A stretch of DNA of 64,000 bases. Source: Agarophyton chilense. Taxonomy: Eukaryota; Rhodophyta; Florideophyceae; Gracilariales; Gracilariaceae. Numbering within the stretch: position 1 is the first letter of the stretch; each line of letters starts with the position of its first letter. The notes beneath the pieces were generated by a model. The model had not been told where the DNA came from, did not search any database, and saw only the letters and a list, made by a program, of their open reading frames with translations. Shown here in pieces: positions 3,129 through 54,120 of this stretch. A program made the translations under genes and the position numbers. The stretch spans positions 186,001 through 250,000 of the forward strand of contig JARGXX010000098.1 in the NCBI GenBank assembly GCA_030374765.1. The letters run 5' to 3'.

Positions 3129-3372
3129 CTTGCTTTGAGATTTGACCGCCTTTGGCTATTGCGGTCTTCCACGTCTTATGTTTTATCGCTCTCGAGAGAA
3201 GAAGAGATAAATTCAATCAACAACATACCTCCCTGTCCTTTCTGGTCGAGAAGCTCCTTACATTTGAAGGTTCAAATCCGTCAACTCCTCCCCACTTCCC
3301 AGTATTTCTACTCTTCTGGAAGGAGTACCAAGACAAAAAGAGACCGAGGACACAGAACCTTACGAAGGCAAA

Positions 3373-6087: not shown

Positions 6088-6952
6088 TGTAGGACAATGC
6101 CCCCAAGGGGGAAAACCTATGAAGACGTCCGGATCTTCCTCTCACGAGGTAACCGGCACGGTAGAGCCCTCCCAGGGATCGGCGCGCAATGCCGGGTGTA
6201 AGCCGAAAGCCGAACCGTCGCGACGGGCGCAGGGAGGCTGAAAGAAGCCGAGTATATCGGCTGAAGTGGTGCTTGCGTATCCTCTGAGGAGGCAAAACCC
6301 ACGAGAGTGGCGAGCACGACAGGTGTCAGTGCGAGCCGCAAGAGCGGGATTTGCCCAATGAAGGGGAGGAAAAGGGGAGGAAAATGGGAACGGAGGCAAG
6401 AGGGCGAGGTTGACCACGAGTCGCAAGAGGGGACTCGGGAATAGCCGGCACTGCCGGGTGTAGCAAACCGTATGCACTGGCGGAACCACGAAAGTGGGAA
6501 TAGATACCCAACACACAAAGGCTGCTTGAACGTCCAAGGGGGTTGGGAAGCCGTGCACCACTGGAAATCCCTCCGTAAGGAGTTGTATATCCGCGCAGGC
6601 GGTTTGACCCAGAGCCAAGATCTGGAAGACCAAGATCACCCTTGTTGGGAAGACTTTACTGGACCGGCGGCCGCGAAGCCGGCGGCCTAAGTACTGTAGT
6701 CACCGTAGAATAGAATAAATAAAGTCTATCCTAAATAGCTAAATGTCCGTCTAACAAAGGGGCCAATCTGGCGGCCACGTGTCTTGCGGGCGCTGCGGCC
6801 ACGCGTATGGCACCCGGTCCCGCCGGTGCATCACCGGCGTTCCGGCCATCGCCGTGAAAACGGATTACTCCTACTCATAACGAGGTTGCACGCCGGAGGC
6901 TCCGGAAAAAACTTAAGTCCCCAAAAACCTCCCTGGAAGACGTTGCTCTTCA
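6088..6952 (-). repeat. gypsy 3' LTR (865 bp)
   Basis: It is near-identical to 16625-17488 with scattered substitutions. It reads TGAAGAGCAACGTC at one end and GTCCTACA at the other on the minus strand. It lies next to the polypurine tract, which identifies it as the 3' LTR. Confidence 0.95.
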
Positions 6953-6955
6953 TAT

Positions 6956-6966
6956 CCCCCCCTTAA
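6956..6966 (-). promoter_or_regulatory. polypurine tract
   Basis: On the minus strand the sequence is AAGGGGGGG followed by ATA and then the LTR start TGAAGAG. This is the standard plus-strand primer position for LTR retroelements. Confidence 0.8.
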
Positions 6967-6998
6967 GACAGGGCGAACACCTCGAAGAGGAAGTCGGC

Positions 6999-8774
6999 AT
7001 GGCAGCTCGTCATGATAAGAGCGCGTCCGACACTGGGTCTCCGGAAACCAACACACCTTCACCAAGGATCCCATTCAAGCTCTTTGCATCCGATTCCAAC
7101 CACAGCACACCAACACGCGCCATGTCCAACCCCGACCGTCATAACACATCCGCGACTCCCGCCCTTGGCGGTTCCACCGGCTTCCGGTCCGCGCCCCACC
7201 CTGGGGATGTTACCAACCTCGCGTACGAAGACCGCCGTATTGGCGCCCGCTTTCGCGGACAGGCGGACCCACCGCAGTGGCCGACCTATGACGCCCTTGT
7301 GGGTGCAAATCCGAGAACTCGGCATGGCTCCGCGATGTTGCGGTATGCGCCTTGGTTTCATCCATTGGCTGTCCGCGACGAGGATTTGATCCACTCCTAC
7401 ACCGATAACTCGGAGATGCTCCCGGGCGACCTGCCCGGCGTGGTGACCATGTCCTGGGATTGGCGTAATCGTATCGCCATCCCGGTACACCACATACTCC
7501 GCCGACGCGGTGAATCCTCTGCGGAGGCTCAGGGCGCGCTTGTGCGGATCGCTTATCTCAGACACCATCGGGCGCCTTTCGAGTTCCCGATACCGCCAGA
7601 GGTCGAATTCGACGTCCACCTTTACCGCACTCGCGGGGGAATGTCGTACTGTGACCGTCTTAACGGATTGGAAACCCTCGCTTGGAGGGGCACACCGATC
7701 GCTCGGCAAGAAGCCCTTTGATGGGGACGACCGATTCTTCGGGCACAGTTCCACTACCAACCGCGGCAGTCGCGCTCGAACTTCCTTCAGAACTTCATTA
7801 GCGATGAGCGGCATTGGCGGGTCCGGACCGGGTATTTCGTACCGTACCAGAACACGGAGATTGAGCGCATCGCGCCTGCCCACCGACGTGGTCGGTACGT
7901 CAGTCTCCCAGACTGGTGGTCCTCCTTGGAGGCGTGCTGGGGTTGCTTCATTGAGCTGCCCCCAGTCTTCACCTATGTAGGGTCGTCGTTCTTGAACGAT
8001 CCCCAGTCGGGGTGGTGGTCCGTCGTGGTAAGCGAATGGGCCGTCCGCACTGCGGCTTTTATCCTCGCTGAGGCGTACGACCAATACCGATTGTGGTACG
8101 TGCCACCGCGTGTGCGGGCTGCGATCCGCCGTTTGGACATGCGCATGCCCCTCGGGGGCGAGGCGAACGAAGAAGAGATGCTGGGCCTCCTCGACTTTGT
8201 GGAGGGGGCCCAGTGGGATGAGGTCCCGCTGGAGAACTCCCAACGCATTCAACCGCGTCGCGGGTCTGGCCCCGGATTCGGGAGGAATACTGCGCTAGCG
8301 GAGGATTTCATCTACTTCGACCCCTGGGAGTACCACGAGATCAGCCGCGAGGAAGCGGAAGCCAACCTGCATGCGCCGCGTGAAGTCCCGGCCGACCACC
8401 CGCGAGGGTATTTCGACTCGAGCGACTATTACCGCGGCTATGCGGATGGTGACCCGATGGTCGACAACGAACCGGGGGATTCGGGTTACGCTCCGATGGA
8501 GGATGACGAGTCCGGCGAGGCCGGTGAGGGGTCCGTTGAATACGGTGGTGAGGCTCCATCCGGGGCTGCTGATGCCGTGCGAACGGATTCCTATCCGACT
8601 CCATCGGTGGCGGGCCCGCCCGCAACTGCCGCTGGCGCGGAGCGGGGCGAGGTCATCGCGCGCTTCCTTCGGGAAGTGGGGCTTCGCCCTTCCGAGATCT
8701 CGGGTGATGTGGCCGCCATGCGGGATGCCTTAGCCAACCGCCTGGGCGGGGGTCCACCTCGTGCGGAGGAATGA
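6999..8774 (+). CDS. antisense accessory gene of the gypsy element, unknown family, one in-frame TGA
   Basis: From a real ATG at 6999 the frame runs 591 codons to TGA at 8772, interrupted only by TGA at 7719-7721. The sequence after the TGA continues without a frame change. The N-terminus (about 70 residues) is polar and Pro/Ser-rich. The middle (residues about 90-430) is rich in aromatic residues and globular-looking, with ELPPVFTYVGSSFLNDP and WWSVVVSEW near 7950-8040 and WDEVPLENSQR near 8215. The C-terminus is acidic, then Pro/Ala-rich. I see no membrane segment, zinc finger or known catalytic motif. Homologous copies at 52268-53955 and 48607-50240 show it is a true coding strand. It starts 47 bp from the LTR and is divergent to the element, so an antisense promoter in the LTR or tract is likely. 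Function unknown. Confidence 0.8.
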
Positions 8775-9110
8775 CCGGAGCTTCCGGTAGAATGTAGGGC
8801 GGCGCCACTAGGGTGCCCTTGCCAGTAGTGAGAAATAAAAGAAGAGGGTCGCCTTTCCGACGCCCTTTCCCAAGTCCACTTCTTTCTTTCTGGGGTACCG
8901 GCCTTCAACCGGGGTTCCAGCGTTGCAGGGAACCAGCCTAGCTGGGAGTTACGTGTTTGTTTAACGGTGGGCGCTTTGCGCGCGGACCAGGTAACTGGCA
9001 CGACCACCAACGACGTTGGGATAGCGTGAGCGGTTGTTTCCTTCCCCGCGTTGGGGCATGGACGGAGATGACGCGTGGCGCCATCAGCCATTCCATTCTG
9101 TGTTCACGGT

Positions 9111-12100
9111 TTATCCCTCTTGGGCGTTTAACAGCGTGGCTGGGAGTGCGGTCCCCGCAAGGCGGTGGTATCGCATCACCGCGGAGCGCGGGAGGTGCTC
9201 GATGGGCTTCGGGGTGTCCCACTCCGGCCCGTATCCGTACCAGCGGGTCCGGTACTGGAACACCCCGTGCTCATCGTAGCTATGTCCGACGATTCGGTCG
9301 AGGACGTACTCCTGCACGTAAACTTGCCGGCCTTGCCGGGTGGTGGTGAACCGAGCCTCAGCGCCGTGTGGTGCTGGGCTCTTCGTCGCCTGTTCCGGGT
9401 CACCCGGTTTGTCATTCCGCTCTGCGGTTGTTGCCGGGTTGCCGGGGCTGCCGTACCGCTTCGTGGAAGTTGCCGGCGCGGCCGGGTTGTGTTTTCGCTG
9501 GGCGGTAGGGGCTTCCCTGAAGTCAGCTCTTACCGCGAGTTTGCGGGGGTCCTTCCGTCTTGGTGACGGTTCGCCGGAGGCCTCCGCTTGATTTGCGGCA
9601 TGCGGCGTTCCCATTTGTGGGCAGTTTCCGCCGAGCGGTGCGCCGTGGGCGGTGAGTGGTTCACCGTCACGGCGATCTGCCTCCGCGGGGTGGCTGTCAG
9701 CCAATGACCGGGATGCCGGGTGCCCATTGGTCCGATCTTCCGCCCGGGTCACGTGACCTTGATGACGGGTGGTCGGACCGTTGCGGACGGTTGGCTCCGA
9801 TTGTTCGGCAAGGGAGGCGGTTTTCGACTTGTCGTCGCGCCCCTTTTCCCCCATGGGGTTCGTACCGTTCTCAACGGAGTGGCTCGCTAGACCTGCTTGC
9901 GCAGCGCCCGCCGGAGTACCGGTATCGACCGAAACGCTCGGTGCGCGACCGCGAATGTGCGGGGAGCCCTCAGTTGCTTCCACGCGATGCGGAGCGTCCG
10001 TAGGGTCTCGCTTCCCGGCTTCGGGTCTTCGAGCGCCTTGGTTTTCCTTGCGGGGTTGCGTGGCGGTCGGGTTGACCGCTGCGTCCTCCGGGAGCGGATT
10101 GGCCTCCGGCGACGATGCCGGTTGCCCGCTTGGGGGCCTTGCCCGGGGTGTCCGGTTAAACTTCCGTTGCGACGGCGATGCTTCCGCGATTGAGCGGGTC
10201 CCCTCCCCCTCCTTAGACGGAGCGACGGGTGATGGTGGGCCAACCGCATGGCGGGTATAGATACCGCTGCGCGGCGCCTGTAAGGGTAGCTGGCCGCGAG
10301 GGCCAGGTGTTTCCGGTATTGCCGGTGGTTCCGATAAAGTCGGTATAGCGGAGGGACCCCGTGAGGGGTGCGGTACCACGGCGGGGCGTGGTGCCACCGT
10401 TGTACCCGTGGTATCCGAGGCCGTTTCGACGGGGGCTGATGCGTTTTCCGCCGGCGGCGGTGGGGCGGCTACGATGCGGTCTTGTGAAAGACGTTCGTGG
10501 TCGCCGTTCTTGTCCACCACAACGGTGCCGGGGAGGGAGGACACGACCCGGAACGAACCTTTAGCGACAGGCGAGAGCTTGTGACGCTTGTCGGTCCGGA
10601 GGTTGTAGTACTCCCGGCGAACGAACACGTAGGTTCCCGGCTTGGGCGGTGCCGGTAGTGGTCCGCGTAAGCGGTTATCAAAATCCCGCTTGTAGGCGGC
10701 CTGGGCACGTTCCATGGACTTCCGGGCGACCGGTACGAGCTTGGAAAGCCAGTTCTTCCACTTGGGGCGGTATTGACCTACGGATGGGAAAGAGTTGACC
10801 CAGTGTTGGGGTTCGACCGCCACTGGCGGGGGTGTCCTGGAGAGCACAAGCTCGGAGGGAGTCAGACCGGTTGTCCGGTGAACTTGCGTGTTGTAGGCGT
10901 AGGTGATAGCATCAGAATAAATGTCCCACGTCATTGGGTGATCGGATACGTAGGAGCGTAGCGACGCGAGTAGGGTGCGGTTGAAGCGTTCCACCTGCCC
11001 GTTTGTTTGCGGGTGGTAGGTGGTAGTAAACAGGTTCTTGACGTCAAGGAAGCGGCAGACGTCCTGAAAGAACTTAGAGGCGAACTGCTTACCGTTATCA
11101 GATAGAACCTCTATCGGAGGGCCATAAACGAACGCCCAGTGCGCAACGAAGGCGTTCGCAACCGTGAAAGCGGTGATCTTCCGTAAAGGTACGGTGCGCA
11201 CCAGCCTCGAAAAGCGGTCAGTGATAACCAAGAAAAACTTGTTTCCCTTGCGCGTTTTGAGTAGAGGCCCGAGAATGTCGATTGCGACAAACTCGAGGGG
11301 CACCCTTGCGGGGAAAAGCTTCATCCGTTTGGAGTGCTTCCGGAGTTTCACCCGGTTCTTTGCGCATTGGGTGCAGAACTGCACCGTAGCGTAGCAATCA
11401 ACCGCCATAGCGGGCCAATAAAAGTCCCTTCGCAGGGTTAGATAAAGTTTTCTCCCACCGGAGTGTCCCCCGAGGGTCGGGTAGTGTGAGAGGTGGAGCA
11501 CCCTGGTTTGCAGGGTGTGGGGGACCACGATCTGGGATCGGTGGTCCACCGTCCGGACGAGGTAACCGATGTCGTTTACCTCGAACGGGAGGTCCTCTCC
11601 ACCGTTTAGGCGGGCCCGTATGCGCGTGCAGAACGGGTCGCCGAACTGTTCTCGGATCATCTCCTTGGTGGAGATGGGTACAAAGGTCCCGGGTACGGGT
11701 GTTTCATTCTCGCGCGCTGCGAGTAGCTCATCCATTTCCATGGTGTCTTCCCCGGTTTCGGGCCAATCCGACTCCGTCGGTGTTTCCCCTTCCAAGGTAA
11801 AGCACGGGATCTCGTCGACCTCCGGGTCGGCAAGTGCTTCACCTGTCGACGGTAATCGAGAGAGGGCGTCTGCTTGGGTGTTCTGGACACCCTTTTTGTA
11901 GACGACCTCGAAGTCGAATTCCGCTAAGCAGAGGCGCCACCGCATTAAGCGGCCAGAAGGATCTGCGATGTTCAGCAGCCACCTCAACGAGGCATGGTCC
12001 GTGTACACGGTGAAATGAACGCCCATGAGGTATGGGCGCAGAGTGGATAGCGCCCAGACCACTGCGAGGCACTCCTTCTCGGAGACCGAGTAGTTGCGCT

Positions 12101-14402
12101 CGTGGACGTTTAGCGTGCGGGACCAATAGCCAATTGGTATGCGTTCCCCCTCGGGGGTGGTTTGGAACAGTGCGCAGCCCACCTGGTGGTCGCTGGCGTC
12201 GGTGTCGATGGAGTAGGGAAGCCCAGGTTTGGGCAAGGATAGGATGGGAGCTGTCGTAACTGCCTTAATCAAGGAGCGAAAAGATTCCGACTGATCGGTG
12301 GTAAATGGCGAAAGCTTCGGTGGCTGGCCCTTCCGCAGTAGCGCGTTTAGCGGAGCGGCGATATCCGAGAAACTCGGTATAAACCGTCGATAGACGTTGA
12401 CCAGACCTAAAAAGGATCGGAGCTCCGTTTGAGTACGGGGCTCCTTCGCCTCACAGAGGGACTGGATATGAACTTGTTCGATCATTAACCGTCCAGGACG
12501 GATGACGTGCCCGAGATACTTCAACGTGTCGGTGAAGAACTCGCACTTCCTCAAGTTGAGGGTTATTCCTGCGTCTCGCAGTACGGTCATCACGTCCCGC
12601 ACGTGGGTCAGGTGATCGTCCAGGTTTCTGGAAAAGACAATGATGTCGTCCAAGTAGACAAGGCACGTGCGCCACTTGAAACGCGACATCAGTATGTCTA
12701 TTGCCCTTTGAAAGTTGGCCGGTGCATTGGTTAAACCAAACGGCATCCGCTTGAAGCGGTAGGAACCCGAGTGGCAAACAAACGCGGTTTTGTCTCGGTC
12801 CTCTTCCCGGACTGGGACCTTCCAGTAGCCCCAGTTAGCATCCAGAGCCGTAAACACGGTAGCGTCCCCGAGCGAGTCTATACAGTCGTCCATGCGCGGA
12901 ATCGGGTAGGTGTCCCTTACGGTGACGGCATTGAGGCGGCGGTAGTCAACGCAAAACCGCCACGTGCCGTCAGCCTTGAGGGCCAGCACCACCGGTGAAG
13001 CCCAAGGAGATTGGGCGGGCTCGATGACTCCAGCACGGAGCATCTGGTCCACCTGAAATTCTTCCTCCTCCCGAGCTTTCGGTCCCGCCCTGTAAGGTGG
13101 TTGTGCAACCGGACGTGCGTCCGGTAGCAAGTCTATCCGATGTTTGGTTGTATTGATCTCACCCAGTGAGCCGTCCCACATTGTGGTAAACTCGCCTAGC
13201 ATTCCGCGTAAGCGGTCCCGGTGTGAGACCGGTACATGACTCAGGTCCAGGTCCTCGAGGGCCTTGATCGGGTCTATCTTATCGTAGCTCGTAGGCTGTG
13301 CCCTGGTGTCAGGTGTGGGAACCGACGAGGTCGGAAATGCATCCGTCTTGACGGGTTTACCGAGCGCCAACTGCTGTGCCTCCCCGGAGGTTTCTGCACC
13401 GGATACCGGGAGACCATCCTCGGTGGAGGGAGTTATTCCGAGTACTTCGGCAGCCGTCACCTTTGTAGGGAGCATCGCGAGCGGGTGCGGCGTCACAGAC
13501 CCAATGACTTGGTTCTTTGCCAGCGTTTGGGGAGCCTTTCCCAGATTGGCAACCAACACCCTGAAAGGGGAATTCGGCGTGACTTGCACGATTCCGTTCG
13601 CAACGGTTAACTGAAATTTCTCGTACAACGAGGGCAAGGGCTGAACAACCCAAAGACCGTGTTGACGGGAATTGACTGAAACCATAACCTGGCTCTCCGG
13701 GGGTATGGTGACTGACGAGGCAACGCGTAGCTTCGTAGAATCCCGGTTCGCCTGTGTGGGTTCCTGTGCGGCAGGTAGAGGAACGTGTTTCCTCGATGCC
13801 CGCTTCAGCGGTTGACGAACAATGGGGACGGTCGATCCGTCCTCAAGTTCCACCTGCTTAAGGCGTGGGCGGATGGCGTCGACAAACCTGTCGCAGTAGT
13901 CACATTCCAGTATAACTGGCGCGGCCAGCGAGCGGCACACAATAAAAGTTAGTTTAACCACCATCCGCCCTAGCCTGACGACCAGGTCGATCACACCAGC
14001 CGTTTTCAACGGGTTGTTATTGGCGTCTGAGACGTCGGGTACCGTTTCAAAACGGATGAGTGACTGCAATGGCGGGGGTAAAACCGATTCCACAATAAAG
14101 TTCGGCCCAGCACCTGTATCCAGGACAGTGAGATATCTCACCATAAACTGCGTGTGCAGACCAAGGTCAGCGTAAACCTTGTAGTTACGCTTGGCCATTA
14201 CCAAGACTCTATCCGGGATCCGGCTATTTCTAATCCGTATCCACGGTCGACGCAAAACACCGAGGTGTTTAGAGTCCGCGTCTGCGGTGTCCTTCCTTGT
14301 CAGGATTTTCAACGGGGAGCGAGGCATCGGCGCCTCGGGCGTCGTCAGCCTCAACTCTGAGGACGCCTCTCCCGAAAGGGAGACTCCGTCTATTCTTTTC
14401 CC
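9111..14402 (-). CDS. pol: gypsy pol polyprotein (protease, RT, RNase H, integrase, chromodomain)
   Basis: The frame is open from the frameshift site at 14402 to the stop at 9111, about 1,760 codons. Numbered from codon 14354, the protease has LDTGAG (residue about 79). RT runs from about 400 and has YLDD at about 565 (12644-12658). RNase H carries TDASDHQVGCALF. Integrase has the HHCC zinc site (HLSHYPTLGGHSG to FCTQC, about 950-1000) and a DDE core (VAIDILGP, SDNGKQF, QVERFNR, about 1025-1125). A GPY/F-like module (KLSPVAKGSFRV) follows, then a long Pro/Ala-rich linker of about 350 residues and a C-terminal chromodomain-like module (YVLDRIVGHSYDEHG to WYGYGPEWDTPKPIEHL). All catalytic residues are present. 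No independent ATG is needed if it is made by frameshifting from gag. Confidence 0.95.
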   Translation of the reverse strand, partial: GKRIDGVSLSGEASSELRLTTPEAPMPRSPLKILTRKDTADADSKHLGVLRRPWIRIRNSRIPDRVLVMAKRNYKVYADLGLHTQFMVRYLTVLDTGAGPNFIVESVLPPPLQSLIRFETVPDVSDANNNPLKTAGVIDLVVRLGRMVVKLTFIVCRSLAAPVILECDYCDRFVDAIRPRLKQVELEDGSTVPIVRQPLKRASRKHVPLPAAQEPTQANRDSTKLRVASSVTIPPESQVMVSVNSRQHGLWVVQPLPSLYEKFQLTVANGIVQVTPNSPFRVLVANLGKAPQTLAKNQVIGSVTPHPLAMLPTKVTAAEVLGITPSTEDGLPVSGAETSGEAQQLALGKPVKTDAFPTSSVPTPDTRAQPTSYDKIDPIKALEDLDLSHVPVSHRDRLRGMLGEFTTMWDGSLGEINTTKHRIDLLPDARPVAQPPYRAGPKAREEEEFQVDQMLRAGVIEPAQSPWASPVVLALKADGTWRFCVDYRRLNAVTVRDTYPIPRMDDCIDSLGDATVFTALDANWGYWKVPVREEDRDKTAFVCHSGSYRFKRMPFGLTNAPANFQRAIDILMSRFKWRTCLVYLDDIIVFSRNLDDHLTHVRDVMTVLRDAGITLNLRKCEFFTDTLKYLGHVIRPGRLMIEQVHIQSLCEAKEPRTQTELRSFLGLVNVYRRFIPSFSDIAAPLNALLRKGQPPKLSPFTTDQSESFRSLIKAVTTAPILSLPKPGLPYSIDTDASDHQVGCALFQTTPEGERIPIGYWSRTLNVHERNYSVSEKECLAVVWALSTLRPYLMGVHFTVYTDHASLRWLLNIADPSGRLMRWRLCLAEFDFEVVYKKGVQNTQADALSRLPSTGEALADPEVDEIPCFTLEGETPTESDWPETGEDTMEMDELLAARENETPVPGTFVPISTKEMIREQFGDPFCTRIRARLNGGEDLPFEVNDIGYLVRTVDHRSQIVVPHTLQTRVLHLSHYPTLGGHSGGRKLYLTLRRDFYWPAMAVDCYATVQFCTQCAKNRVKLRKHSKRMKLFPARVPLEFVAIDILGPLLKTRKGNKFFLVITDRFSRLVRTVPLRKITAFTVANAFVAHWAFVYGPPIEVLSDNGKQFASKFFQDVCRFLDVKNLFTTTYHPQTNGQVERFNRTLLASLRSYVSDHPMTWDIYSDAITYAYNTQVHRTTGLTPSELVLSRTPPPVAVEPQHWVNSFPSVGQYRPKWKNWLSKLVPVARKSMERAQAAYKRDFDNRLRGPLPAPPKPGTYVFVRREYYNLRTDKRHKLSPVAKGSFRVVSSLPGTVVVDKNGDHERLSQDRIVAAPPPPAENASAPVETASDTTGTTVAPRPAVVPHPSRGPSAIPTLSEPPAIPETPGPRGQLPLQAPRSGIYTRHAVGPPSPVAPSKEGEGTRSIAEASPSQRKFNRTPRARPPSGQPASSPEANPLPEDAAVNPTATQPRKENQGARRPEAGKRDPTDAPHRVEATEGSPHIRGRAPSVSVDTGTPAGAAQAGLASHSVENGTNPMGEKGRDDKSKTASLAEQSEPTVRNGPTTRHQGHVTRAEDRTNGHPASRSLADSHPAEADRRDGEPLTAHGAPLGGNCPQMGTPHAANQAEASGEPSPRRKDPRKLAVRADFREAPTAQRKHNPAAPATSTKRYGSPGNPATTAERNDKPGDPEQATKSPAPHGAEARFTTTRQGRQVYVQEYVLDRIVGHSYDEHGVFQYRTRWYGYGPEWDTPKPIEHLPRSAVMRYHRLAGTALPATLLNAQEG
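14368..14402 (-). promoter_or_regulatory. -1 programmed ribosomal frameshift site joining gag to pol
   Basis: On the minus strand the last gag codons read CAG GGA AAA GAA TAG. The heptamer G GGA AAA (14402-14396) is in exact register for -1 slippage (X XXY YYZ). Pol is in the -1 frame and is open across this point. Twelve nucleotides downstream lies a strong hairpin, TCTCCC-TTTC-GGGAGA (14383-14368), beyond the gag stop. This is the standard layout for gag-pol frameshifting. Confidence 0.85.
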
Positions 14403-16501
14403 TGTACAGGGTCCTGGTCGGGCGAAGGCCCGACTTTCTCGGCAACGAGTGCATGATTCCGTTGCACGGTAGCTACCGCCGGAGCGGGTTGAGATCCACC
14501 AGCGTGGTTTGGCGCTGGTGCGGCGCGTGCCGGCTGAGCTGGTTTGTACCGAGAATTCGGAGTGTGAGCCAATGCGTTGGGGAAGTCCGTCTTCGCGCGG
14601 AGATATGACGTGAGTGGCACGGAGCCCTTCTCCTGCGGGGAGAGGGCTTCGTAATTATCCACCACTAGCGCCATATCGCGTAGCGATAAAAGGCATTGCA
14701 GGGAGGTGTGCCCGTGCTCGTAGCAAAAGTGGAACACCAACGTCACTCCCGCGTTTCGCGGTACGGCGTTCCGAGCATCGGTGTATCTTCTGGGTTCCCG
14801 GTTTCCAACCCATCCAGGGCGCTGACTTCGTGTCATTCCGTTCGAGTACGGCATAAGGGGGGCCGGAGTGCGGCGGTCATTAAGATAAAAGACCTGCCCG
14901 TTCTCCGTGTCCCTTGCGGTTGAGTCAACCGAGCCATCCGTCGTAGACGGTAATTCCGTTGTCAAAATAGATAAACCATCGTGATGGATGACATTCATAT
15001 TTTCATAACCCTGTTTGGGGATGCCATCCGTCGCAAATGACGGTGAAGAAGAGTCCGACTCAAGCAGCAATGCCTTAGCGGCCTTCGACCGGGTTCCCGG
15101 ATGGCGTGCACGTAGTGCATCTCCCTCTGCGCGGGCAAACTGTACGAGTTCAAGGTAGGTCACCTTCGGCTCTTGTTCCCTGTAACGGGCGACAAGAGTC
15201 TTGATGGCTGGATCCAAGCCATCAATGAACATCGTACAGCGTTCCCCAGCGGGGTATACATTACCACAACGGTGGAAAGCCTTATTCAGGCGTACCGAGT
15301 AATAGGTCTCGAGCTCGCCGGAGCGTTGTCGAGTGTCTCGCAAAGCGAGTATCGCCGCTTGTATCGCGGAGTTGGTTGCGTAGGAACGCAGGAGGTACTG
15401 CACGGCCTCGGGCCAGCAGGTCACACCTCCTTCGGAGGCTCGCGACGAGCCCCGAACCGACAAAAACTGATCTTCAGCGACACCCCGTAGAAAGTAGGGT
15501 AGCGCCACGTAGGCTTGTCCTTCGTTCATTCCGAGTATATCGGCTTCCGCTACAAAGCGGTGTAGGAAATCCAAGACCAGAATTGAATCATCCCCAGTAA
15601 ACGACTGGTTACGAAGTGAAAGCTGCATCCGCTTGATGCAGACTTTCACTTTACCCGTGTCACGCGGTGTCCGACCTAAAGAGGAATCTTCTAGCCGGTG
15701 ATACCCGTAGGACAGGAGTGTCCTGTACAGAGGGTTGGTGGGCTTCAAGGGTTTGAGGCCCGGATGTCGCCGACCCTTGGGGCGCGACCGGATGGCCCCG
15801 TAGGTGGCAGAGGACCGCTTTGAGCGGGAAGAGCGCCCATAGCGATCCTGTGGGTCATCGCTCACCGACGAATCGGAACTCTCCGAGTCACTCTGTTTAC
15901 CGTCCGACTCAGATGATGAGTCGGACGGGTGTCCGTGCTTACGGTTAGAATCCCGGTTCTTCCGGCTCTTCCGGTTCCGCGACTGGGTCTCTCGATGAGA
16001 GACAACCGGTCTAGCCGCGTTCGCGGGCGAGGTTAACGTCCTCTCGACCGACTCAAGTCGGCTTCGGAGACGCTCGAAGCGATTCTCCATACCTTCTGCG
16101 AAGGAAAACAAAGCGCCAAAACACGCGAGTAGTGTATTGACGTCCGACCGCAATACGCGGATATCCTCGGCTAACTCACTTGGAGGGGGGTTTGCGAGGC
16201 TTCCTCGTAAAGAGGTGAACTCCCTCGAGAGGGTATTGTGAGCAGCCCGCAGGGAGCGGAGCTGCTCTTCCAAGCGTACAATCCGCGCTTGGTCGACCAA
16301 CCGCGGAGGCGGAGAAACCAACGTTGCGACGGTCGTTAACCCGGAATCGGGCTGCGGGTCTTCAGTGCCGGTGACCGGTATCTCCCGGGAATCCGGTGTT
16401 GGAGCCAGGGCCTGTGGAACATCAGTGCCCCTGGCATCACCGCTTTGGCGGGAACGGCTGCGTGTTGCAGGAGGCTCCATGCTAGGCGGTTTCCTTGGCA
16501 T
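14390..16501 (-). CDS. gag: gypsy gag polyprotein
   Basis: The frame is 703 codons from the ATG at 16501 (an ATG at 16480 is also possible). The N-terminus is basic. A coiled-coil-like segment (RLEEQLRSLRAAHNTLSREF) lies at about residues 75-165, then an Arg/Ser-rich patch. A capsid domain of the Ty3/gypsy type follows: ILVLDFLHRFVAEADILGMN to TMFIDGLDPAIKTLVARYRE (about 310-460). Near residue 600 is a zinc-knuckle relic, CYEHGHTSLQC, in which the first Cys of CCHC is replaced by Phe. It ends at TAG 14390-14392 just after the slippery heptamer. Homologues are decayed at 42690-44697 and begin at 63573. Confidence 0.9.
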   Translation of the reverse strand: MPRKPPSMEPPATRSRSRQSGDARGTDVPQALAPTPDSREIPVTGTEDPQPDSGLTTVATLVSPPPRLVDQARIVRLEEQLRSLRAAHNTLSREFTSLRGSLANPPPSELAEDIRVLRSDVNTLLACFGALFSFAEGMENRFERLRSRLESVERTLTSPANAARPVVSHRETQSRNRKSRKNRDSNRKHGHPSDSSSESDGKQSDSESSDSSVSDDPQDRYGRSSRSKRSSATYGAIRSRPKGRRHPGLKPLKPTNPLYRTLLSYGYHRLEDSSLGRTPRDTGKVKVCIKRMQLSLRNQSFTGDDSILVLDFLHRFVAEADILGMNEGQAYVALPYFLRGVAEDQFLSVRGSSRASEGGVTCWPEAVQYLLRSYATNSAIQAAILALRDTRQRSGELETYYSVRLNKAFHRCGNVYPAGERCTMFIDGLDPAIKTLVARYREQEPKVTYLELVQFARAEGDALRARHPGTRSKAAKALLLESDSSSPSFATDGIPKQGYENMNVIHHDGLSILTTELPSTTDGSVDSTARDTENGQVFYLNDRRTPAPLMPYSNGMTRSQRPGWVGNREPRRYTDARNAVPRNAGVTLVFHFCYEHGHTSLQCLLSLRDMALVVDNYEALSPQEKGSVPLTSYLRAKTDFPNALAHTPNSRYKPAQPARAAPAPNHAGGSQPAPAVATVQRNHALVAEKVGPSPDQDPVQGKE

Positions 16502-16605
16502 TGGCCACACCGTCTCGACGGAAGAATAGAAAGCAAACCGGTGAGACCGGAGAAAACCGGTTAAACGGAAAACAACCTCAGAGAGGACACAAGCGGTCTT
16601 GACTT

Positions 16606-16621
16606 CTAAGTCGGGAGACCA
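16606..16621 (-). promoter_or_regulatory. primer-binding site
   Basis: On the minus strand the LTR end TACA is followed by three bases and then TGGTCTCCCGACTTAG. The same 16 bases occur at 63360-63375 in another element. The implied tRNA 3' end is CTAAGTCGGGAGACCA. Its last 11 bases closely resemble the 3' end of eukaryotic tRNA-Tyr (yeast ends CCGGGAGACCA), so tRNA-Tyr priming is a reasonable guess. Confidence 0.7.
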
Positions 16622-16624
16622 ATT

Positions 16625-17488
16625 TGTAGGACAGTGCCCCCAAGGGGGAAAACCTACGAAGACGTCCGGATCTTCCTCTCACGAGGTAACCGGCGCGGTA
16701 GAGCCCTCCCAGGGATCGGCGCGCAATGCCGGGTGTAAGCCGGAGCCGAACCGTCGCGACGGGCGCAGGGAGGCTGAAAGAAGCCGAGGATATCCGCTGA
16801 AGCGGTGCTTGCGTATCCTCTGAGGAGGCAAAACCCACGAGAGTGGCGAGCACGACAGGTGTCAGTGCGAGCCGCAAGAGCGGGAATTGCCCAATGAAGG
16901 GGAGGAAAATGGGAGGAAAATGGGAACGGAGGCAAGAGGTCGAGGTTGACCACGAGTCGCAAGAGGGGACTCGGGAATAGCCGGCACTGCCGGGTGTAGC
17001 AAACCGTATACACGGGCGGATCCACGAAAGTGGGAATAGATACCCAACACACGAAGGCTGCTTGAACGTCCAAGGGGGTTGGGAAGCCGTACACCACGGG
17101 AAATCCCTCCGTAAGGAGTTGTATATCCGCGCAGGCGGTTCGACCCAGAGCCAAGATCTGGAAGACCAAGATCACCCTTGTTGGGAAGACTTTACTGGAC
17201 CGGCGGCCGCGAGGCCGGCGGCCTAAGTACTGTAGTCACCGTAGAATAGAATAAATAAAGTCTATCCTAAATAGCTAAATGTCCGTCTAACAAAGGGGCC
17301 AATCTGGCGGCCACGTGTCGCGCGGGCGCTGCGGCCACGCGTATGGCACCCGGTCCCGCCGGTGCATCACCGGCGTTCCGGCCATCGCCGTGAAAACGGA
17401 TTACCCCTACTCATAACGAGGTTGCACGCCGGAGGCTCCGGAAAAAACTTAAGTCCCCAAAAACCTCCCTGGAGGACGTTGATCTTCA
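16625..17488 (-). repeat. gypsy 5' LTR (864 bp)
   Basis: It pairs with 6088-6952. It is followed outward by TTTCT at 17489-17493, matching the duplication at 6083-6087. Confidence 0.95.
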
Positions 17489-22452: not shown

Positions 22453-22499
22453 TGCTCTAAGCCAATGGAAGCGTGAGTTTCGCTTCTTCACACAAAGAG

Positions 22500-42689: not shown

Positions 42690-44697
42690 GCAATGCGGTG
42701 AGCAGCAGTACTGTTGCCCCGGGTATGTTTTATCCATGCCCAAAACCAAAGCTTGCGTCATCTACCGAAGCAGGAGCTCGAATGTACCGACAGGCAATCA
42801 ACTGATCTCGCTTTGGGACTGATGGACGAGATCTCTCGGATGTCTCTGTACCCGTGAACTTGGCGATAGCGCCTCCAACGGAGCCACCTATGACCCCTGC
42901 TGAACCTAGTGCTCAACAGGCCACGACTTCTATTTAGGAAGATTATTTTAGCGCTGAGGTGCTTCGTCTCAGATCTCAGTCAATTGCCTACGGTGTAAAG
43001 ATCATTGGATGAGAATCGCAAACAACGGTCATTACTTAAGACGCTGAGCACATTCGTAGGGAGCAAGTTTCACTCGCACGTCGAGGAGAGAAGGAACAAA
43101 TGTCTGTGATTTTTAAAACTTTGAAAGAGGACCAAACCCAATTGATGGAAAGGCACAGTAATGATCCGGAGGCTTTACTGGTCCTGACCGGTGACTTGGA
43201 GGAAGTCTTCAATCGAGTTTACTCTCGTTTGGAACGCCCCAAGGCATTGGTGGATGCGTAAACTGCTGGTACCCCAGTCGTCATAGAGGAGGATGAAACC
43301 CCTTTGAGGGAAGATCTCTCGAAGAAATCGAAAACTAAATCTTAGAGACGCAAGAAAAGACGGTACAAACCGGAAACCAGCGATAATTCGTCAGATTCGG
43401 AGGATGAGGACTCCAGTTCTGACGATTTTGATTCGTAAGGTACGTCTGATAGCGACTCCTGTAATGATGATCATCGTAGCTCCCAATCAAGGAAGGGGAA
43501 CGAGTCTTCTTGGTTATTAAGGAAAAAAGGCTCCAAGTACAAGCGGCCCAAGCCCCTTCCTTGTACGAATCCATTATATTGGAAGGCCCTGAACTATAGG
43601 TATTACCGTCTACAGAACAGAAGAAAAGAACCGATCCAGTCTCGAAACAGCTAAAGTTATGGACCACATCAAATGGCTAAGGTTTGAACTAAATGATGTA
43701 GTCTTCGATGGCAAACCCCCCATTCTCGTCATCGAGTTCCTTACCCGTTTCGTTTACAAGGCGGATACCCTCGCAATGAGTGATCCTGAAGGTTGGGTTT
43801 TCGTGCTCTACTTCTTGGTACGTTTTACGTTAGAGCAATGTCATTCCGTTTGCAGATCCCTAACAGCCACCGACGGATGTGTAACCTCCTGTCCAGGAGA
43901 AGTACTCTACTTACTGTGAAGCTATGCGACTTCCAACACAATCCGACAGGCTATCCTAGATCTTCGTGATGTGACCCAGAAACCTGGTGAAAGAGAAGCA
44001 GGATATAGCTTGAGGCTTAACAAAGCCGTCACTCGCTGTGAAAACGTTCATTCAACGGAAAACAAGGTTTCATTTTTCATTGATCGGCTAGATCCCAATA
44101 TCAAGTCTTGAGTAGCTCGACTTCGAGAGAAGAATGCTAGAACCTTCTTTCTGGAGTTGGTTGAGTTTGCGTAAGCTGAAGGTGATGCGGTGAGATATCG
44201 CGGTTGTTATGCATCACACCACGAAACTTGGTTCATCCAAGGCAGAGAAGCGACGCAAACAAACCGCGAAATCCGCTCCCAATGTGTTACATCTGTAATC
44301 TCCTGTGTACTCACGAGAGTCCTCGTTCAGTAGGTATGATGACCAATCGTGGCACGATGCTATCTACTTCATAGATTATCGGCAGTCATCAGTGCCCACA
44401 TGCAAGTTACCTCATTCGGAGTCACAGGATGAAAAAGCCGTAATGGCTACAGAGGGCAGACGCCCAGTATATCGTGCATATAGATTTCCTCCAGAGGGAG
44501 GGTTCAGGAATGAAAAACACGGACGGGTGGACACTCCGGTTGCATACCGATCCCAGCCGACGACAGAAACACGCCGAGAAGCGTTAATATGCTCCCTGTG
44601 TTACGGTCGTCATCATCAGTCGGCAGAATTCCCACTTCCTGCTAAGGATTTAATGCGATTTCTCACAAATTATGAAGCCCTCTCGGAGGAAGAATGA
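42690..44697 (+). pseudogene. gypsy gag remnant
   Basis: Its start matches the gag at 63573: GACGAGATCTCTCGGATGT at about 42829 is shared. The capsid part (43659-43919: ILVIEFLTRFVYKADTLAMS) matches the intact gag at 14390-16501. The zinc knuckle is ICSLCYGRHHQSAEF, with the first Cys present but the last replaced by Phe. Numerous stops and frameshifts interrupt it. Confidence 0.85.
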
Positions 44698-45089
44698 AAC
44701 CGAGTGCCGGCCAGTAATTACTGGAGGGTAAAGGCATGGCTTAGCTACAGACCCAGACGTCAATCTGGAGTCCCAGTGGTTCAGAACCCCGAAGAAGCAC
44801 AGTCAAACAAGCCATTTGAGAGCAATGCTCGTACAGCGAAGGAAACGAATCAGTCGTAAAAGTAAGTGAGGGAACCCCAAGGGGGTCGTTCCTAGGCCGC
44901 ACTGTAGTACCAATCAGGCAGAACTCGCTTCCCTGTTCCCACTCTTGGAGTTCCAAGATCTTGGTAAGGACTCACCACATTCCGTCGAGTGGATTGAAAC
45001 CGTCCGTTTGAAAGCGAGTACAATTTGACGGTCAACTAAAACGCCCATGGCGACGCTACGTTTAACCGTCGAAACGAAACAACTTCATT

Positions 45090-46950
45090 ATGATAATGCA
45101 GAAGAGAAACTATAACGTTTACGCTGACACTGGCTCGGATTGAAGTTTAGCAACCCGCCGCTTTAGCGTTCTGAACAATGGGGCAGAAACGAACTTTATT
45201 CGGATCTCGGAACTATCAGCAGCAGATATGGAATATATCCGCTACGGTCTGCTGCCGGATATCCGGGATGCTCACAGGATTGCAATGCGAACACTTGGAA
45301 CATTGAGGCTGCTCGTTCAGCTCGGAGACTTTTTAGTGATAGTGAGGTTTATTGTCTGCCAGTTTCTGGCTGTACCAGTTGTTCTAGGATGTGAGTATTG
45401 CGATAAGTTCGTTAAATGAATCTGCCCCCGGGGACGACTAGTCGAGCTGGACGATGGCTCAACGGTTTCAATAGGGCGAAGACTACAACAGAGAGTCCCT
45501 ACAGTAACTCCAGTTGTGCCTTCATTGGAATACAAGTTGGCTCGTGGTCGTACATCACCGAAGATTCGCGTGTCGAAGCCTACATTATTGAAGGCTCAAT
45601 CCCAACCCTGGGTACAAATCCTAACAGAACGACACGATCCCGTGATAATACAGCCCATTATCGCTAGGTACGAGCATCAAGGCTTATTCGAAGCAAATTT
45701 GAATTATCCAAGTTGAACCGTCTAAGCCTTTCTGGATACTTGTCAGTAACTTTACCGATAACGATTATAGTTTGAAGAAGAATCAGATTGGTGTAGCTGC
45801 TCTGCTGCACCTCACAACAGTGGTTTCGACACATGTTTCTACTGTAGATGTGCTAGGGCTCACGGGAGTTTCCAAAGAATCAGAGAATGTTCTGGAGGGT
45901 CCTAGAGAACAGTCGCAAACGACAGAAGAACGAAAATACCCAGATCAGCTGGTAGAGGAGCTCACTCTCTTTCACGCTCCCGCGAAATACAAGGAAAAAC
46001 CCAAAGAAATGTTGAAAAAGTATTCCTCTTTGTGGAGTGGAAAACTAGGATAGATCTCCCCCACAAAAAAAAACATTGATGTTATTTCGGGATCTCGTCC
46101 AATTTGCCAGCCACGATACAGAGCAGGCCCAAGAACTCATCAGATCGAGGAAGACTCTGTAGCCGAGATGTTGGAAGCAGCTCTCATCTAAGTGTCTCAA
46201 TCGACCTCGGCCTCACCAATGGTGTTAGTACCGAAACTTGACGGTTCCTCAAGGTTTTTTATTGACTATATAAAACCGAATGCAGTAACAGTAAGAGATA
46301 AATACCCGCTGCCTCGCATGGAAGAGGGAATATACAGCCTAGGCGAAGCAAACTTGTTTACCACGCTTGACGCCAACACTGGTTATTGGCAGGTTCCTGT
46401 AGCCGAAAACGACCAGAATAAGACTACATTCGTATGCAACTCTGGATTTTACCGTTTAAAGTGCATTTCAGTTGAACTAACCAATGCCCTAGCGACTTTC
46501 CAGCGCGCTCTGGATATATTACTCTCCAATTATAAATGAAAGACATGTCTAGTCTACTTGGGGGACATCATAATCTTCTCAAAGAACATAGAGACCCATT
46601 TGCAACATTTGGAGGAGATTCCCAAAGCGCTGCAGACAGCCGGTTAAACCTTGAAGTTCAAGATTTGTGAATGGTTCGCGAGTACGGTGAAGTAATGGGC
46701 ACACATAATTAAGCGCAGTCAGCGCTCAGTGCATGAAGCTCAAACGGCGGCTATCCAAAAAGCTCGACCGTTCTCTACACAGACCCAAATGGGATTCTTT
46801 CTTGCATTATTCAACTTCTATCGACGATTCATAACCTGCTGCTGGCACGTTGCAGCTCCACTAAACGCATCGTTGCGTATAGGACAACCTGTTCGGCTCA
46901 AAGAACTCAGAGCGGCCAAACAAAATGCCCTCGAGACTGACGCTGTGAGT
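45090..46950 (+). pseudogene. gypsy pol 5' half (protease and RT)
   Basis: It starts like the intact element (MQKRNYNVYAD against MAKRNYKVYAD). The protease site is LNNGAETNF in place of LDTGAGPNF. RT runs from about 46190, with ANLFTTLDANTGYWQVPV, and the catalytic box is YLGD in place of YLDD (about 46555). The match ends near 46950 at the start of RNase H, where foreign sequence begins. Stops near 45145, 45417, 45714, 46190 and 46538 confirm decay. Confidence 0.9.
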
Positions 46951-48606
46951 TATCGCTCGTTGTGTACGTAGGATTTTCTGTGAGATGTACTATGAAGGGC
47001 AACTTTGGATCAGGACAAGATCGCCTCCTCCGCTGAGGGCTTTCTCTCCCCTCTCTGCGTCGTTCTGGTTTACTCTTTAGGACTCTACCTTTCAGTCTGC
47101 CTTGTGTCCTTTCCATCGTACACAATCTCTGAAGCTGACAATGTCCTTGCACTCACGGCGGAGTACGCGTTCAATAGGGTTCTGTGTAGATACAAGCGAC
47201 GTTGCAGCATCGATACCCTTTCATTGCTTTTATTGCATCTGGACTGCAATCTACTATCCAATTGTACGTCTCATACCATTGTCTCACATACCCCCCAGTT
47301 TCATGACGTGATGGTAAAGCAACTTTGTATCAAACAGCTTTCGTCCATGTCTTGATTTTCAATGCGAATGAACAATGTGAAGGGAGCTGTCACATCCCTG
47401 TGACGGCGACCTGGTTCAGTAATCTGTGGGAAATGGGGTTATGTTTTTTCAAAGTGTTTGCAACATTAACGTTTCCATGAACCCACCTTAATACATTCAG
47501 CTCTTTGGATTCAAATGAATCACGGAGACGTTGCACAGTTTGACGTAAGCGGTATTCTTTCCCCTCATGTAGTGTCGTTATCTTGTCAAGCAATCCTTTC
47601 GAATCGACATTGAGCACATGGTTTAATTCGTCAGCAGTAGAAACAGATTTCAAAACACACTTAAGGTTGTACCCTCGATCATCAGCGTCCGTGTATGCCA
47701 GAATTTTGGCGCCATAGGAATAGTACGACACTCTTCTCTGCTTCAAGCTTGCCCAGTCAATAAGATGGTACGTTCTAGCATCTCCGTCATCAGTTCTGTA
47801 TCTAATACCAGTGATGAGTCCCGTTTGTCCATACTGTTGACTTGAAGAGGCATTGAACGCTGCATCCGAAAATGTGACTACTTCAGCTGCTTGTAAGGTG
47901 CCATAAGTTCGTCTGAATGATATGATTGGCGTCATTCTTCTTAGTTCATTCAAAACCTTATTTGCATCAATGAGATCTTTCACAGAAAGGTAAGGGATTC
48001 TTTGTTGCATGAAAGATCCGACATATGCTGCATGAGGCAAAGCGCCGCTACCAAGCGATATCATTCCTCCCGCCATCTTCCGCTATGATTTTCTTTCACC
48101 TCCGTTTGCCTTTTCAAGCTGCATAGCTCGTCGAGGTTTGCTGACATTCAGTGGCTTAACAGCTTTAGAATATTCCTTCATAGATAACACTATGTCAAAG
48201 TTCTCATTCTGCCTGATTGTGCACCCGTTGAACTTAATTTCGTCGTCGATAATAGTCTTGCTTACCTTGAACCTACGACCAATATCGTCTGCAAACTGAT
48301 GCATTTCGTCTAGCGATTCAGTCATGAGAAGGTCATCCGTAAGCTTGGCGAGCAGGAATTTATGTCGCCTTCTTTGCTTCTCCGAATGAATAACTGACTG
48401 ACACCAAATACCCTTTAGATCTCCGCACTGCCCAATAGCCACCCTTCTATTACTTGTGCCCATGGTCTGCCTGCTTCCCTGATTCAATATGGTAGCGTCA
48501 CAAGTATCGCTCAATGTGTACGTAGGATAGTCTGTGAGATGGACTATGAAGGGCAACTTTGAATCAGGACAAGATCGCCTGCTCCACTGAGGGCTTGCTC
48601 TCTACG
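46951..48606 (-). mobile_element. truncated Ty1/copia element flanked by 95-bp LTR remnants
   Basis: About 95 bp are repeated directly at 46951-47045 and 48509-48606 (shared core GTGTACGTAGGAT to GGGCAACTTTG). On the minus strand the copia pol remnant ends near 47390. A G-rich tract (CTGGGGGG, 47290-47299) follows, then TGTGAGACAATGG (from 47288), which fits a polypurine tract and LTR start. The direct repeats are then best read as the shared 3' part of two LTRs, the 5' one truncated at 48606. Confidence 0.55.
47390..48556 (-). pseudogene. copia RT-RNase H remnant
   Basis: One frame, broken by a single TAG (48080-48082), contains LLAKLTDDLLMT (RT catalytic box region), DEMHQFADDIGRRFKV and, after the stop, the copia RNase H pattern: TFSDAAFNASSSQQYGQTG, IDWASLKQRRVSYYSYGAK, VDSKGLLDKITTLHEG and LNVLRWVHGNVNVANTL. 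RT is missing its N-terminal half. It belongs to a copia lineage different from the one at 3373-5046. Confidence 0.8.
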
Positions 48607-50240
48607 GGCAGGACAAAGGGACCTTCACCGAAGGATTCTCCATCGGACATACCAGCTGGAACCAACGGCGTGGCTTCCACCCCAGGCTCGAAGCGTAGGG
48701 GATCGAAACCAACGGCCTTCGTGAAATATTCAGGCACATGAAGCCTCGGAATTTCCGATGGTTGATTCCTCAAAGGCTTGGTGGGATAAGCACAAGCGTC
48801 GTCCCGACCCTGCGGATGTAGCGGAATCAGCGTGAGCGAGTCGGTATCGTGGTCATACCAAAGGGACCCGGAAGTATTGCCCCACTCGACCTGTAGGACA
48901 TGATCCGAAAGCGCCTCGGCCTCCTCGACGTCGAACTGAGTCCCACGGATGATAATGCGAGTGCCCAGGTTCCTTAGGGAACGGATCATGATGTCCGGGA
49001 GCGGGATTTTACGACCTCGAGAACAGGATATGTTCCCGTCCTACCATACCCCTTAATCATTCGAACGGAAATTGACACGGACTCCTTACTTCATAGTACC
49101 CAAGAAGGCCATAAAAGACATCAACTGAACTCAAAGAAGAGTACCAGCCAAGACAACCAAGACCTTCGGTCATTGTCGTCACCCATGAGCTGGGACGAAT
49201 GATACGCTACCACGGACGGCGTAGGGACCAAAAGGAGCGGCGAGACACGCCAGTACGTGGCTCAGTTTTTCTCATCTACGCGGGGCAGTGAAAGATATAA
49301 CGGAGGACGTTTGTCTGCGCTCATGAAGTGGAACTCCACCTGGTGCCAACAAAAGAAGAACTACATGGACTGATGTAAACGACCATCGGGCTCGTTCATC
49401 TCGTTCCAATAGACCCCATTGGAGATCCAAAACAGGCAGTCATACGGCGAACGGAAACACGTGAGCGCTAAGAGGTTGTGACCTCACATGCCGTGAGATG
49501 AATTCCGTGCATAGGTCCGAAAGGAGTATGTTCACCCTGAACTGGTACCCGGTTTCTCCCTCCGAGCGGACGTACGGCATGTCCGCTTGGATGAGGATGC
49601 AATAGTGCGTTTCCGAGCGCGGATCCACAGGACAATGCAAGCACCAGCTATACCACGAGACGCTGAGCGCGTTTTTACTGCCCCTCCGGAAATCGGATAT
49701 CTTGGCAAACCATCGGTCGTCGATATACATATGACAGAACCGCTGGTATTCTTCCACAGAGGACGGAAAATTTTCATTGCGCACCGCCCGCGGATTCCGT
49801 CCGATTGTATGGTCATAGCGGTCCACGGGGCATTCATAGGCCACTTGGTATCCAGAGGAGCTCCCCGCTTGGTTGTTCGAAACCATGGTACCGCTGCCGA
49901 CAGGTTGGTCCGCCGGGAAATTTATAGGAAAACCGACGGAAACGACGAATTCCGGGGTGAGAATAGCGTATCCGACGGGCTTATAAGGTCAGTTCGGCAA
50001 CGCGCGCGACCGATGGAAAAGTACCACGATGAAAAGAGTAGACGACGGAATTGACCTAAGCGGAATGAAAGGCGTAAACAACGGTGCTCGAAACGTGGAG
50101 GGTCGCCAAAGGAAGAGCGGAGACTAAGGAAGGCCTCAATGACCATCAGAGTAGAAGGAGCCAATGGACCATCTCGTAAACACGACACTGGCAATGCGCC
50201 GGCTATGCAACTATGGCCAGCGACCACGGCGCGCATGAGT
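48607..50240 (-). pseudogene. third, most decayed copy of the antisense accessory gene
   Basis: On the minus strand three blocks align with the accessory genes at 6999-8774 and 52268-53955. They are: YIDDRWFAKISDF to QFRVNILLSDL (about 49750-49540); a stretch with VVAYHSSQLMGDD (about 49225-49185), matching the TYVGSSFLNDP block; and an end block with LWYDHDTDSLTLI and VPEYFTKAVGFD (about 48870-48680). Several frameshifts and stops separate them. The gene start lies near 50240, and a polypurine-like tract and LTR-like start follow at 50422-50435, the same layout as in the intact element. The 3' end runs into the copia LTR remnant. Confidence 0.6.
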
Positions 50241-53955: not shown

Positions 53956-54120
53956 CGCTGAATGATTGGAAACAGACTGGCGTGAATCGTCTAAGAGCGT
54001 GTTGAACTTGAATTTGGAAGGTGTTCGTAAGGACTAAGAAAACTCGGAAGACCGATGCATCATTCTGGCGCAGTATATAAAGACGTCTTCCGTCACTGTG
54101 ACTTCGCGCTTAAAGGGGAA

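What the first reader, a model, noticed from the sequence alone, without database searches (positions are those of the whole stretch)
6999..8774. Conserved antisense accessory gene in three diverged gypsy elements
An open frame of about 590 codons lies on the strand opposite gag-pol, between the chromodomain and the 3' LTR. Homologues sit in the same place and orientation in two other elements (52268-53955 and 48607-50240). Blocks such as ELPPVFTYVGSSFLNDP / ELPPTITYIGSALIDDP and WDEVPLENSQR / WDGGPLEHSER are kept, while LTRs and spacers no longer align. That pattern implies past selection on the antisense protein. I recognise no family. It could act in packaging, silencing suppression or integration, or be env-like.
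Basis: partly seen in the sequence, partly recalled or inferred. Interest (0 to 1): 0.88.

Follow-up and report, generated by a model that had tools for sequence, protein, structure and literature searches.

The report
Antisense accessory gene of seaweed retrotransposons
Several old families of copy-and-paste mobile elements in a Gracilaria-type red seaweed carry the same extra protein gene, written backwards behind their normal genes and kept by natural selection; such backward genes are known from land-plant elements, but this protein matched nothing in the databases searched.

Summary
The 592-codon + strand frame at 6999-8774 (one TAG in this copy) lies inside a complete Ty3/gypsy element (6088-17488; LTRs 97% identical) whose gag-pol is on the - strand. 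The genome holds at least 116 close copies (82 of 116 without a stop in the piece tested) and diverged families down to about 30% identity. In 69 of 73 loci gathered through the ORF, a chromodomain-bearing pol end lies on the opposite strand 188-494 bp behind it. Between families only this frame shows coding selection (third positions 28-47% identical, first and second 43-84%; dN/dS about 0.1-0.2, dS near saturation). ORF and chromodomain diverge together (r 0.87). Relatives occur in Agarophyton chilense, Gracilariopsis chorda and Gracilaria domingensis. Pfam, PDB and viral folds gave no convincing match; the core model is fair (pLDDT 77). The layout is the known aORF-3R kind of plant elements; protein family and host group appear new. 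Most likely a nuclear accessory protein made from an antisense transcript begun in the 3' LTR; function and expression are inferred.

The parts
6088..17488 (-). Element 1: complete Ty3/gypsy element with chromodomain, gag-pol on the - strand
   Evidence: LTR pair 97.2% identical; ends TGTAGGACA...CTTCA, target duplication TTTCT on both sides (read)
6088..6952 (-). 3' LTR of element 1 (antisense ORF starts 46 bp from it)
16625..17488 (-). 5' LTR of element 1
6953..6967 (-). Polypurine tract (AAGGGGGGGATA) next to the 3' LTR
   Evidence: read; a similar C-rich tract on the ORF strand precedes the ORF in families 2 and 3
16603..16624 (-). Probable primer binding site (AAT-TGGTCTCCCGACTTAG) after the 5' LTR
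   Evidence: read; tRNA partner not identified
14390..16678 (-). gag frame (stop to stop)
   Evidence: Retrotrans_gag E 0.0017, below Pfam's cut-off
9111..14654 (-). pol frame: RT, RNase H, integrase, C-terminal chromodomain
   Evidence: RT, RNase H, integrase above cut-offs; Chromo E 0.064, below cut-off; its counterpart in family X is above cut-off
6999..8774 (+). Antisense accessory ORF of element 1; one in-frame TAG at 7719-7721 in this copy
52271..54033 (-). Decayed antisense ORF of element 2 (several frames, stops)
43475..46899 (+). gag and first part of pol of element 2
   Evidence: tblastn
50800..52001 (+). end of integrase region and chromodomain of element 2, antisense to its ORF
   Evidence: tblastn
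48567..49988 (-). Fragments of the third, remote ORF family (family X), inside the broken pol of element 2

Best explanation
The ORF is a true accessory gene of chromodomain-bearing Ty3/gypsy elements of Gracilariales, encoded antisense between pol and the 3' LTR and kept by purifying selection since before families 1, 2, 3 and X split. Shown: position, orientation, the reading frame under selection, long co-inheritance with the pol end, and an intact frame in many copies. Inferred: since in element 1 the start codon lies 46 bp from the 3' LTR, its mRNA must begin in that LTR (a U3 antisense transcript) or outside the element. Inferred: the product is a soluble, compact, mostly helical protein with an acidic linker and a small C-terminal helical motif; it works in the nucleus on nucleic acid or chromatin and helps the element's own expression or the nuclear steps of replication, as is supposed for the aORF-3R proteins of Grande and Retand.
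For: At least 116 close copies and diverged families. Chromodomain opposite and downstream in 69 of 73 loci. Between-family codon pattern: F1/F3 w 0.19, F2/L043 w 0.13, with 2 or more stops in both partners in every other frame for 16 of 16 pairs. In F1 the ORF core has w 0.66 for singletons and 0.38 for shared variants (23 N, 19 S), the adjacent pol end 0.82 and 0.82 (17 of 20 copies). ORF and chromodomain distances correlate at r 0.87, 0 of 2000 permutations (31 of 35 loci). Homologues in three named Gracilariales. Nuclear hints: PPKKRTRL / PPKKRARL in the two intact X copies read and a subthreshold Ish1-like C-terminus (E 0.09). No TM-strength segment in 4 of 4 proteins (highest window 1.57).
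Against: No transcript or protein evidence was available. Nuclear hints are weak: Ish1 is below cut-off, in 2 of 10 sequences scanned; the basic run was read in two X copies only. The core fold matches nothing, so no biochemical role is indicated. Among close F1 copies the signal is mild: whole ORF w 0.68 and 0.59; for the N-terminal piece a reverse frame full of stops gives a lower ratio (0.65) than the ORF frame (0.71). Family 2 shows no clear contrast (0.78 v 0.69; core 0.71 v 0.75). Between-family dS is near or beyond saturation. 5 of 20 F1 copies lack the ATG at 6999, one of them frame-shifted; in family 2 the start is uncertain.
Confidence: 0.5

Rival explanations
1. A particle or packaging protein: the antisense product joins the virus-like particle (a second capsid- or nucleocapsid-like part) rather than acting in the nucleus.
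For: Long, helical, soluble core with disordered ends and acidic linker; the families are very numerous.
Against: No fold match in PDB or BFVD; no gag or zinc-knuckle match in Pfam; antisense expression would be an odd way to make a bulk structural protein.
Confidence: 0.15
2. A suppressor of host silencing, or a trans-acting copy-number regulator with the role of the Ty1 factor p22 of yeast (recalled; p22 is a sense-coded Gag fragment).
For: A trans-acting protein kept in all families seen would fit; purifying selection between families.
Against: Nothing in sequence or fold points to it; no similarity to gag was seen.
Confidence: 0.15
3. Env-like or cell-to-cell movement protein.
For: Location between pol and the 3' LTR, where env sits.
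Against: Antisense; no 19-residue window above 1.6 on the Kyte-Doolittle scale in 4 of 4 proteins.
Confidence: 0.04
4. A sequence captured once that hitch-hikes, the antisense RNA rather than the protein being what matters (dsRNA control).
For: The aORF review allows an RNA role (PMC7264820, parts 1 and 2 of 3 read).
Against: The codon-position pattern and intact frames point to selection on the protein. No relative outside elements was recognised among the hits, but their genomic context could not be seen.
Confidence: 0.08

Closest known systems
aORF-3R of plant Ty3/gypsy elements (maize Grande gene23, rice RIRE2, Silene Retand; PMC7264820, PMC11963269)
   Same: Antisense ORF between pol and 3' LTR, kept in many copies, of unknown function; for Grande the review reports a nuclear product and a promoter upstream of the gene
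   Different: No Transposase_28 (PF04195) in 13 of 13 members at E up to 10; host is a red alga; ORF starts almost at the LTR edge in element 1; the pol-3' LTR stretch is about 2.2 kb here against 2.9-6.6 kb in Retand, which is described there as a non-chromovirus lineage
Boty of Botrytis cinerea (cited in PMC7264820)
   Same: Non-plant element with an antisense ORF between pol and 3' LTR
   Different: Protein not compared here (sequence not at hand)
HTLV-1 HBZ (recalled; HTLV antisense genes and a 3' LTR antisense promoter are cited in PMC7264820 and PMC11963269)
   Same: Antisense gene with its promoter in the 3' LTR; nuclear regulator
   Different: No bZIP or other Pfam domain here; animal retrovirus; 3' LTR start is only inferred here
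Chromodomain Ty3/gypsy elements (chromoviruses)
   Same: Gag, RT, RNase H, integrase, C-terminal chromodomain, LTRs, PBS, PPT, 5-bp TSD
   Different: The antisense gene; RT tree not built here

Membership tests
[quoted passage not shown]
   Element 1. Other families: pol side in 69 of 73 loci; LTR side only by a PPT-like tract in families 2 and 3, no LTR pair seen there
aORF-3R (antisense additional ORF between pol and 3' LTR) | Antisense to gag-pol | tested here: met
   69 of 73 loci opposite to the chromodomain; 3 without a hit (L004, L029, L050), 1 on the same strand (L052). Family X: 2 of 3 copies with enough flank
aORF-3R (antisense additional ORF between pol and 3' LTR) | Present in most copies of the element family | tested here: inconclusive
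   Loci were gathered through the ORF, so elements lacking it would not appear
aORF-3R (antisense additional ORF between pol and 3' LTR) | Own antisense transcript or promoter | not testable with these tools
   No RNA data held
Retand / TRP28 (PF04195) antisense protein | Transposase_28 domain | tested here: not met
   No PF04195 among Pfam matches up to E 10 for 13 of 13 members, nor for two family X proteins up to E 1
Retroviral or plant env-like protein | Sense orientation | tested here: not met
Retroviral or plant env-like protein | Transmembrane segment | tested here: not met
   0 of 4 proteins with a 19-residue window above 1.6; highest 1.57
HBZ-type antisense retroviral regulator | bZIP domain | tested here: not met
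   No bZIP among Pfam matches
HBZ-type antisense retroviral regulator | Transcript starting in the 3' LTR | not testable with these tools
   Inferred only from the start codon 46 bp from the LTR of element 1
Chromodomain Ty3/gypsy element | RT, RNase H, integrase in order and a C-terminal chromodomain | tested here: met
   Chromo below cut-off in element 1, E 0.064; Chromo 27.7 bits, above cut-off, in family X
Chromodomain Ty3/gypsy element | RT phylogeny within chromoviruses | not tested
   -

The most novel reading that the evidence does not exclude
A protein family with a fold not yet in the PDB has been an essential, antisense-coded gene of red-algal Ty3 elements since before the Gracilaria-Gracilariopsis split, driven from a bidirectional 3' LTR. 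It would be an independent, deep counterpart of HBZ and of the plant aORF-3R genes, and an unusually well-supported case that such antisense genes act as proteins.
Probability: 0.35. Interest if true: 0.8.

Novelty: new variant of a known kind. Interest (0 to 1): 0.6.

Why it matters
The role of antisense ORFs in LTR elements has stayed open since Grande, RIRE2 and Retand; the review read leaves it open whether the protein, the RNA or both matter. Here hundreds of copies of several families in one compact genome give codon-level evidence that the protein is kept, a core model good enough to guide constructs, and a clear transcription test (a start inside the 3' LTR). If the protein proves essential, antisense genes would be a recurrent, perhaps convergent, solution in plant, algal, fungal and animal retroelements.

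Tried and rejected
Tried without result: Pfam, PDB sequences, Foldseek PDB and BFVD and VIA-align, tblastn in phages, viral contigs (no match), prokaryote genomes (20 pattern matches, none a relative). A first AlphaFold run on the full protein was poor (pLDDT 41); a second on the core with 25 sequences gave pLDDT 77, pTM 0.77, its five models ranging from 43 to 77. E3_binding, DEC-1, BcsO, DUF2357, UBE2O and HTRA1 matches were taken as noise. An LTR pair for element 2 was sought and not found.

Rejected: (a) that the third region is not a homologue, my own first conclusion, corrected; (b) a selected opposite frame: the - frame of 411 codons (7059-8294) has no open counterpart in other families; the reverse frame that shares third positions shows a shadow of the signal (w 0.61 and 0.73 in F1 with 19 stops per copy; 0.63 and 0.65) and was not taken as coding; (c) env.

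Against my reading: in family 2 shared variants were not clearly more constrained, and its control frames behaved erratically (shared w 0.55 to 2.29), so that test is uninformative there. In F1 singletons that shadow frame (0.61) lies slightly below the ORF frame (0.68), and for the N-terminal piece likewise (0.65 against 0.71).

Full report
What is there. The window lies in an unnamed 79.8-Mb assembly of 135 contigs. Database proteins of Agarophyton chilense (Gracilaria chilensis) share identical stretches of 403, 430 and 359 residues with loci of this genome (P0006/L043, P0001/L059, P0005/L023; a fourth pair, P0003/L051, only 37). The host is therefore very probably that seaweed; the published assembly (76.07 Mb, 138 contigs; PMC10388701, passages seen) is close but not the same. 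Element 1 spans 6088-17488: two LTRs of about 865 bp, 97.2% identical, TG...CA ends, target duplication TTTCT, a polypurine tract at the 3' LTR and a TGG-type primer site at the 5' LTR (read). Gag and pol are on the - strand. The + frame from ATG 6999 to TGA 8774 fills most of the space between the pol stop and the 3' LTR. This copy has one TAG at 7719-7721.

More than chance. The genome search with the 350-codon C-terminal piece scored 116 places, at 90-100% identity; by my hand count of that table 82 of 116 have no stop in the piece. 1685 candidates were seen but only 116 scored, so counts are lower bounds. A sister copy (L002) is open for all 591 codons; 2000 dinucleotide-preserving shuffles of it averaged 13.9 stops and none was free of stops.

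Relatives inside the genome. The piece from element 2 (52271-53092) finds 142 matches at 38-100% identity. Two distant homologues used as queries find 83 and 68 scored places (the lists overlap with each other and), among them family 2 (frames of about 611 codons) and family 3 (about 652; L073 is intact). Of the 73 loci fetched up to then, 69 have a pol chromodomain on the opposite strand, starting 188-494 bp behind the end of the ORF match; 3 show none within the fetched flank (L004, L029, L050) and 1 shows it on the same strand (L052). The 73 include the window's own two copies (L001, L021), one place fetched twice (L056/L072) and at least two near-identical pairs (L003/L004, L016/L017). As all were collected through the ORF, this says nothing about elements that lack it.

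The third copy. Two - strand pieces there, however, each find 150 scored matches in the genome, and open frames of 698 and 748 codons were read in other copies (L076, L077). Profile-profile alignment of this family X (5 rows) with the first family (A3, 13 rows) gives E 2.9e-5, probability 74%, over 148 columns at 25% identity; with A4 the E-value was 1.5e-4 and the probability 51%. 60 column-shuffled versions scored at most 23.7 against 48.8, and the reversed one 15.8. Behind the ORF of L076, on the opposite strand, lie a chromodomain above Pfam's cut-off and an RNase H; this pol is 37% identical to that of element 1 over 665 residues, and L077 shows the same pol end about 340 bp behind its ORF, while L075 shows none although it has room. 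So family X is a remote relative with, as far as seen, the same layout. In the window it is a fragment inside the interrupted pol of element 2, next to a 1.65-kb stretch with 98-bp terminal direct repeats.

Which strand is selected. For pairs from different families, third codon positions of this frame are 28-47% identical and first and second positions 43-84% (for example L055/L043: 0.76, 0.80, 0.46; F1/F3: 0.64, 0.68, 0.39); dN/dS is 0.09-0.19 where dS is finite, and dS is near or beyond saturation. The closer pair L052/L032 gives 0.78, 0.79, 0.63 and 0.32, and the remote pair X/F2 0.40, 0.49, 0.30. In all 16 pairs every other frame on either strand has two or more stops in both partners. 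Among copies of one subfamily the ratio is 0.57-0.92 (7 pairs), and 0.44 between the two X copies, as expected for copies decaying after insertion. Within F1, mean dN over mean dS is 0.55 for the C-terminal and 0.71 for the N-terminal piece against 0.78 for the adjacent pol end (18, 17 and 15 of 20 copies used); for the C-terminal piece the ORF frame has the lowest ratio of the six frames, for the N-terminal piece it does not. Splitting variants into singletons and shared ones gives 0.66 and 0.38 for the core, 0.68 and 0.59 for the whole ORF, and 0.82 and 0.82 for the pol end (17 copies; L004, L007 and L017 dropped as duplicate or frame-shifted). Family 2 (20 copies, L072 dropped) does not show this contrast (0.78 and 0.69) and is uninformative. 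Distances of ORF and chromodomain across 31 of 35 loci correlate at r 0.87, with 0 of 2000 permutations as high: they have travelled together.

Relatives elsewhere. Three protein searches gave 8, 10 and 9 hits, 21 distinct proteins (P0001-P0021): Agarophyton chilense; Gracilariopsis chorda BWQ96_03215 (55% identical to L002 in the search table, 61% in the alignment), BWQ96_05177 and BWQ96_10156; Gracilaria domingensis FGB62_50g12; 8 from unnamed records. Only about 8000 candidates sharing most words were scored each time, so absence from other algae is not shown. Four Gracilaria species are said to have diverged about 100 million years ago in PMC12502185 (start of abstract in the listing).

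Expression. In F1 the start codon lies 46 bp from the 3' LTR (ATG in 15 of 20 copies). In family 3 (L073) it lies about 35 bp behind what looks like the same LTR edge and C-rich tract; in family 2 an in-frame ATG lies about 24 bp behind such a tract in L053 and L060 but not in L055, whose first ATG is about 150 bp away (read by eye; LTR edges of families 2 and 3 were not established by an LTR pair). For element 1 an antisense mRNA would thus have to begin in the 3' LTR or outside. This is inference; no RNA data were at hand.

Known or new. [quoted passage not shown] PMC11963269, passages read). Retand's carries PF04195, which was not found here. Nine full-text searches were answered. The one on Gracilaria + retrotransposon + antisense returned no paper, and I saw none on such a gene in red algae in the other listings; only open-licence PMC papers are held, so this is not proof of absence. 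Text searches of two Gracilaria genome papers found no occurrence of 'LTR'. I call it a new variant of a known kind.

Noticed in passing
46951-48602: A 1.65-kb stretch inside element 2's pol bounded by 98-bp direct repeats (91% identical), with - strand frames of 230 and 172 codons; no convincing Pfam family.
   Followed up: partly
3268-4476 +: Ty1/copia-type reverse transcriptase (RVT_2, E 5e-34); another class of retroelement in the window.
   Followed up: no
2804-3159: Tandem array with a 33-bp period, overlapping an open + frame of 205 codons (2528-3145), upstream of the copia-type RT.
   Followed up: no
21760-31569: Host-like genes between the elements: DUF4291 (E 3e-60), glycosyl transferase family 2, patatin-like, CIA30, TACC_C.
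   Followed up: partly
34320-37058 -: 912-codon frame without a Pfam match at E 0.01.
   Followed up: no
L052 2335-2502 (oriented with the ORF): Chromodomain on the same strand as the ORF, while another pol piece nearby is opposite: a local inversion or nested copy.
   Followed up: no
G000 C68:3138904, 3148101, 3157298; C77:296612, 305861: ORF copies at regular spacing of about 9.2 kb with equal scores, as if whole elements lie in tandem.
   Followed up: no
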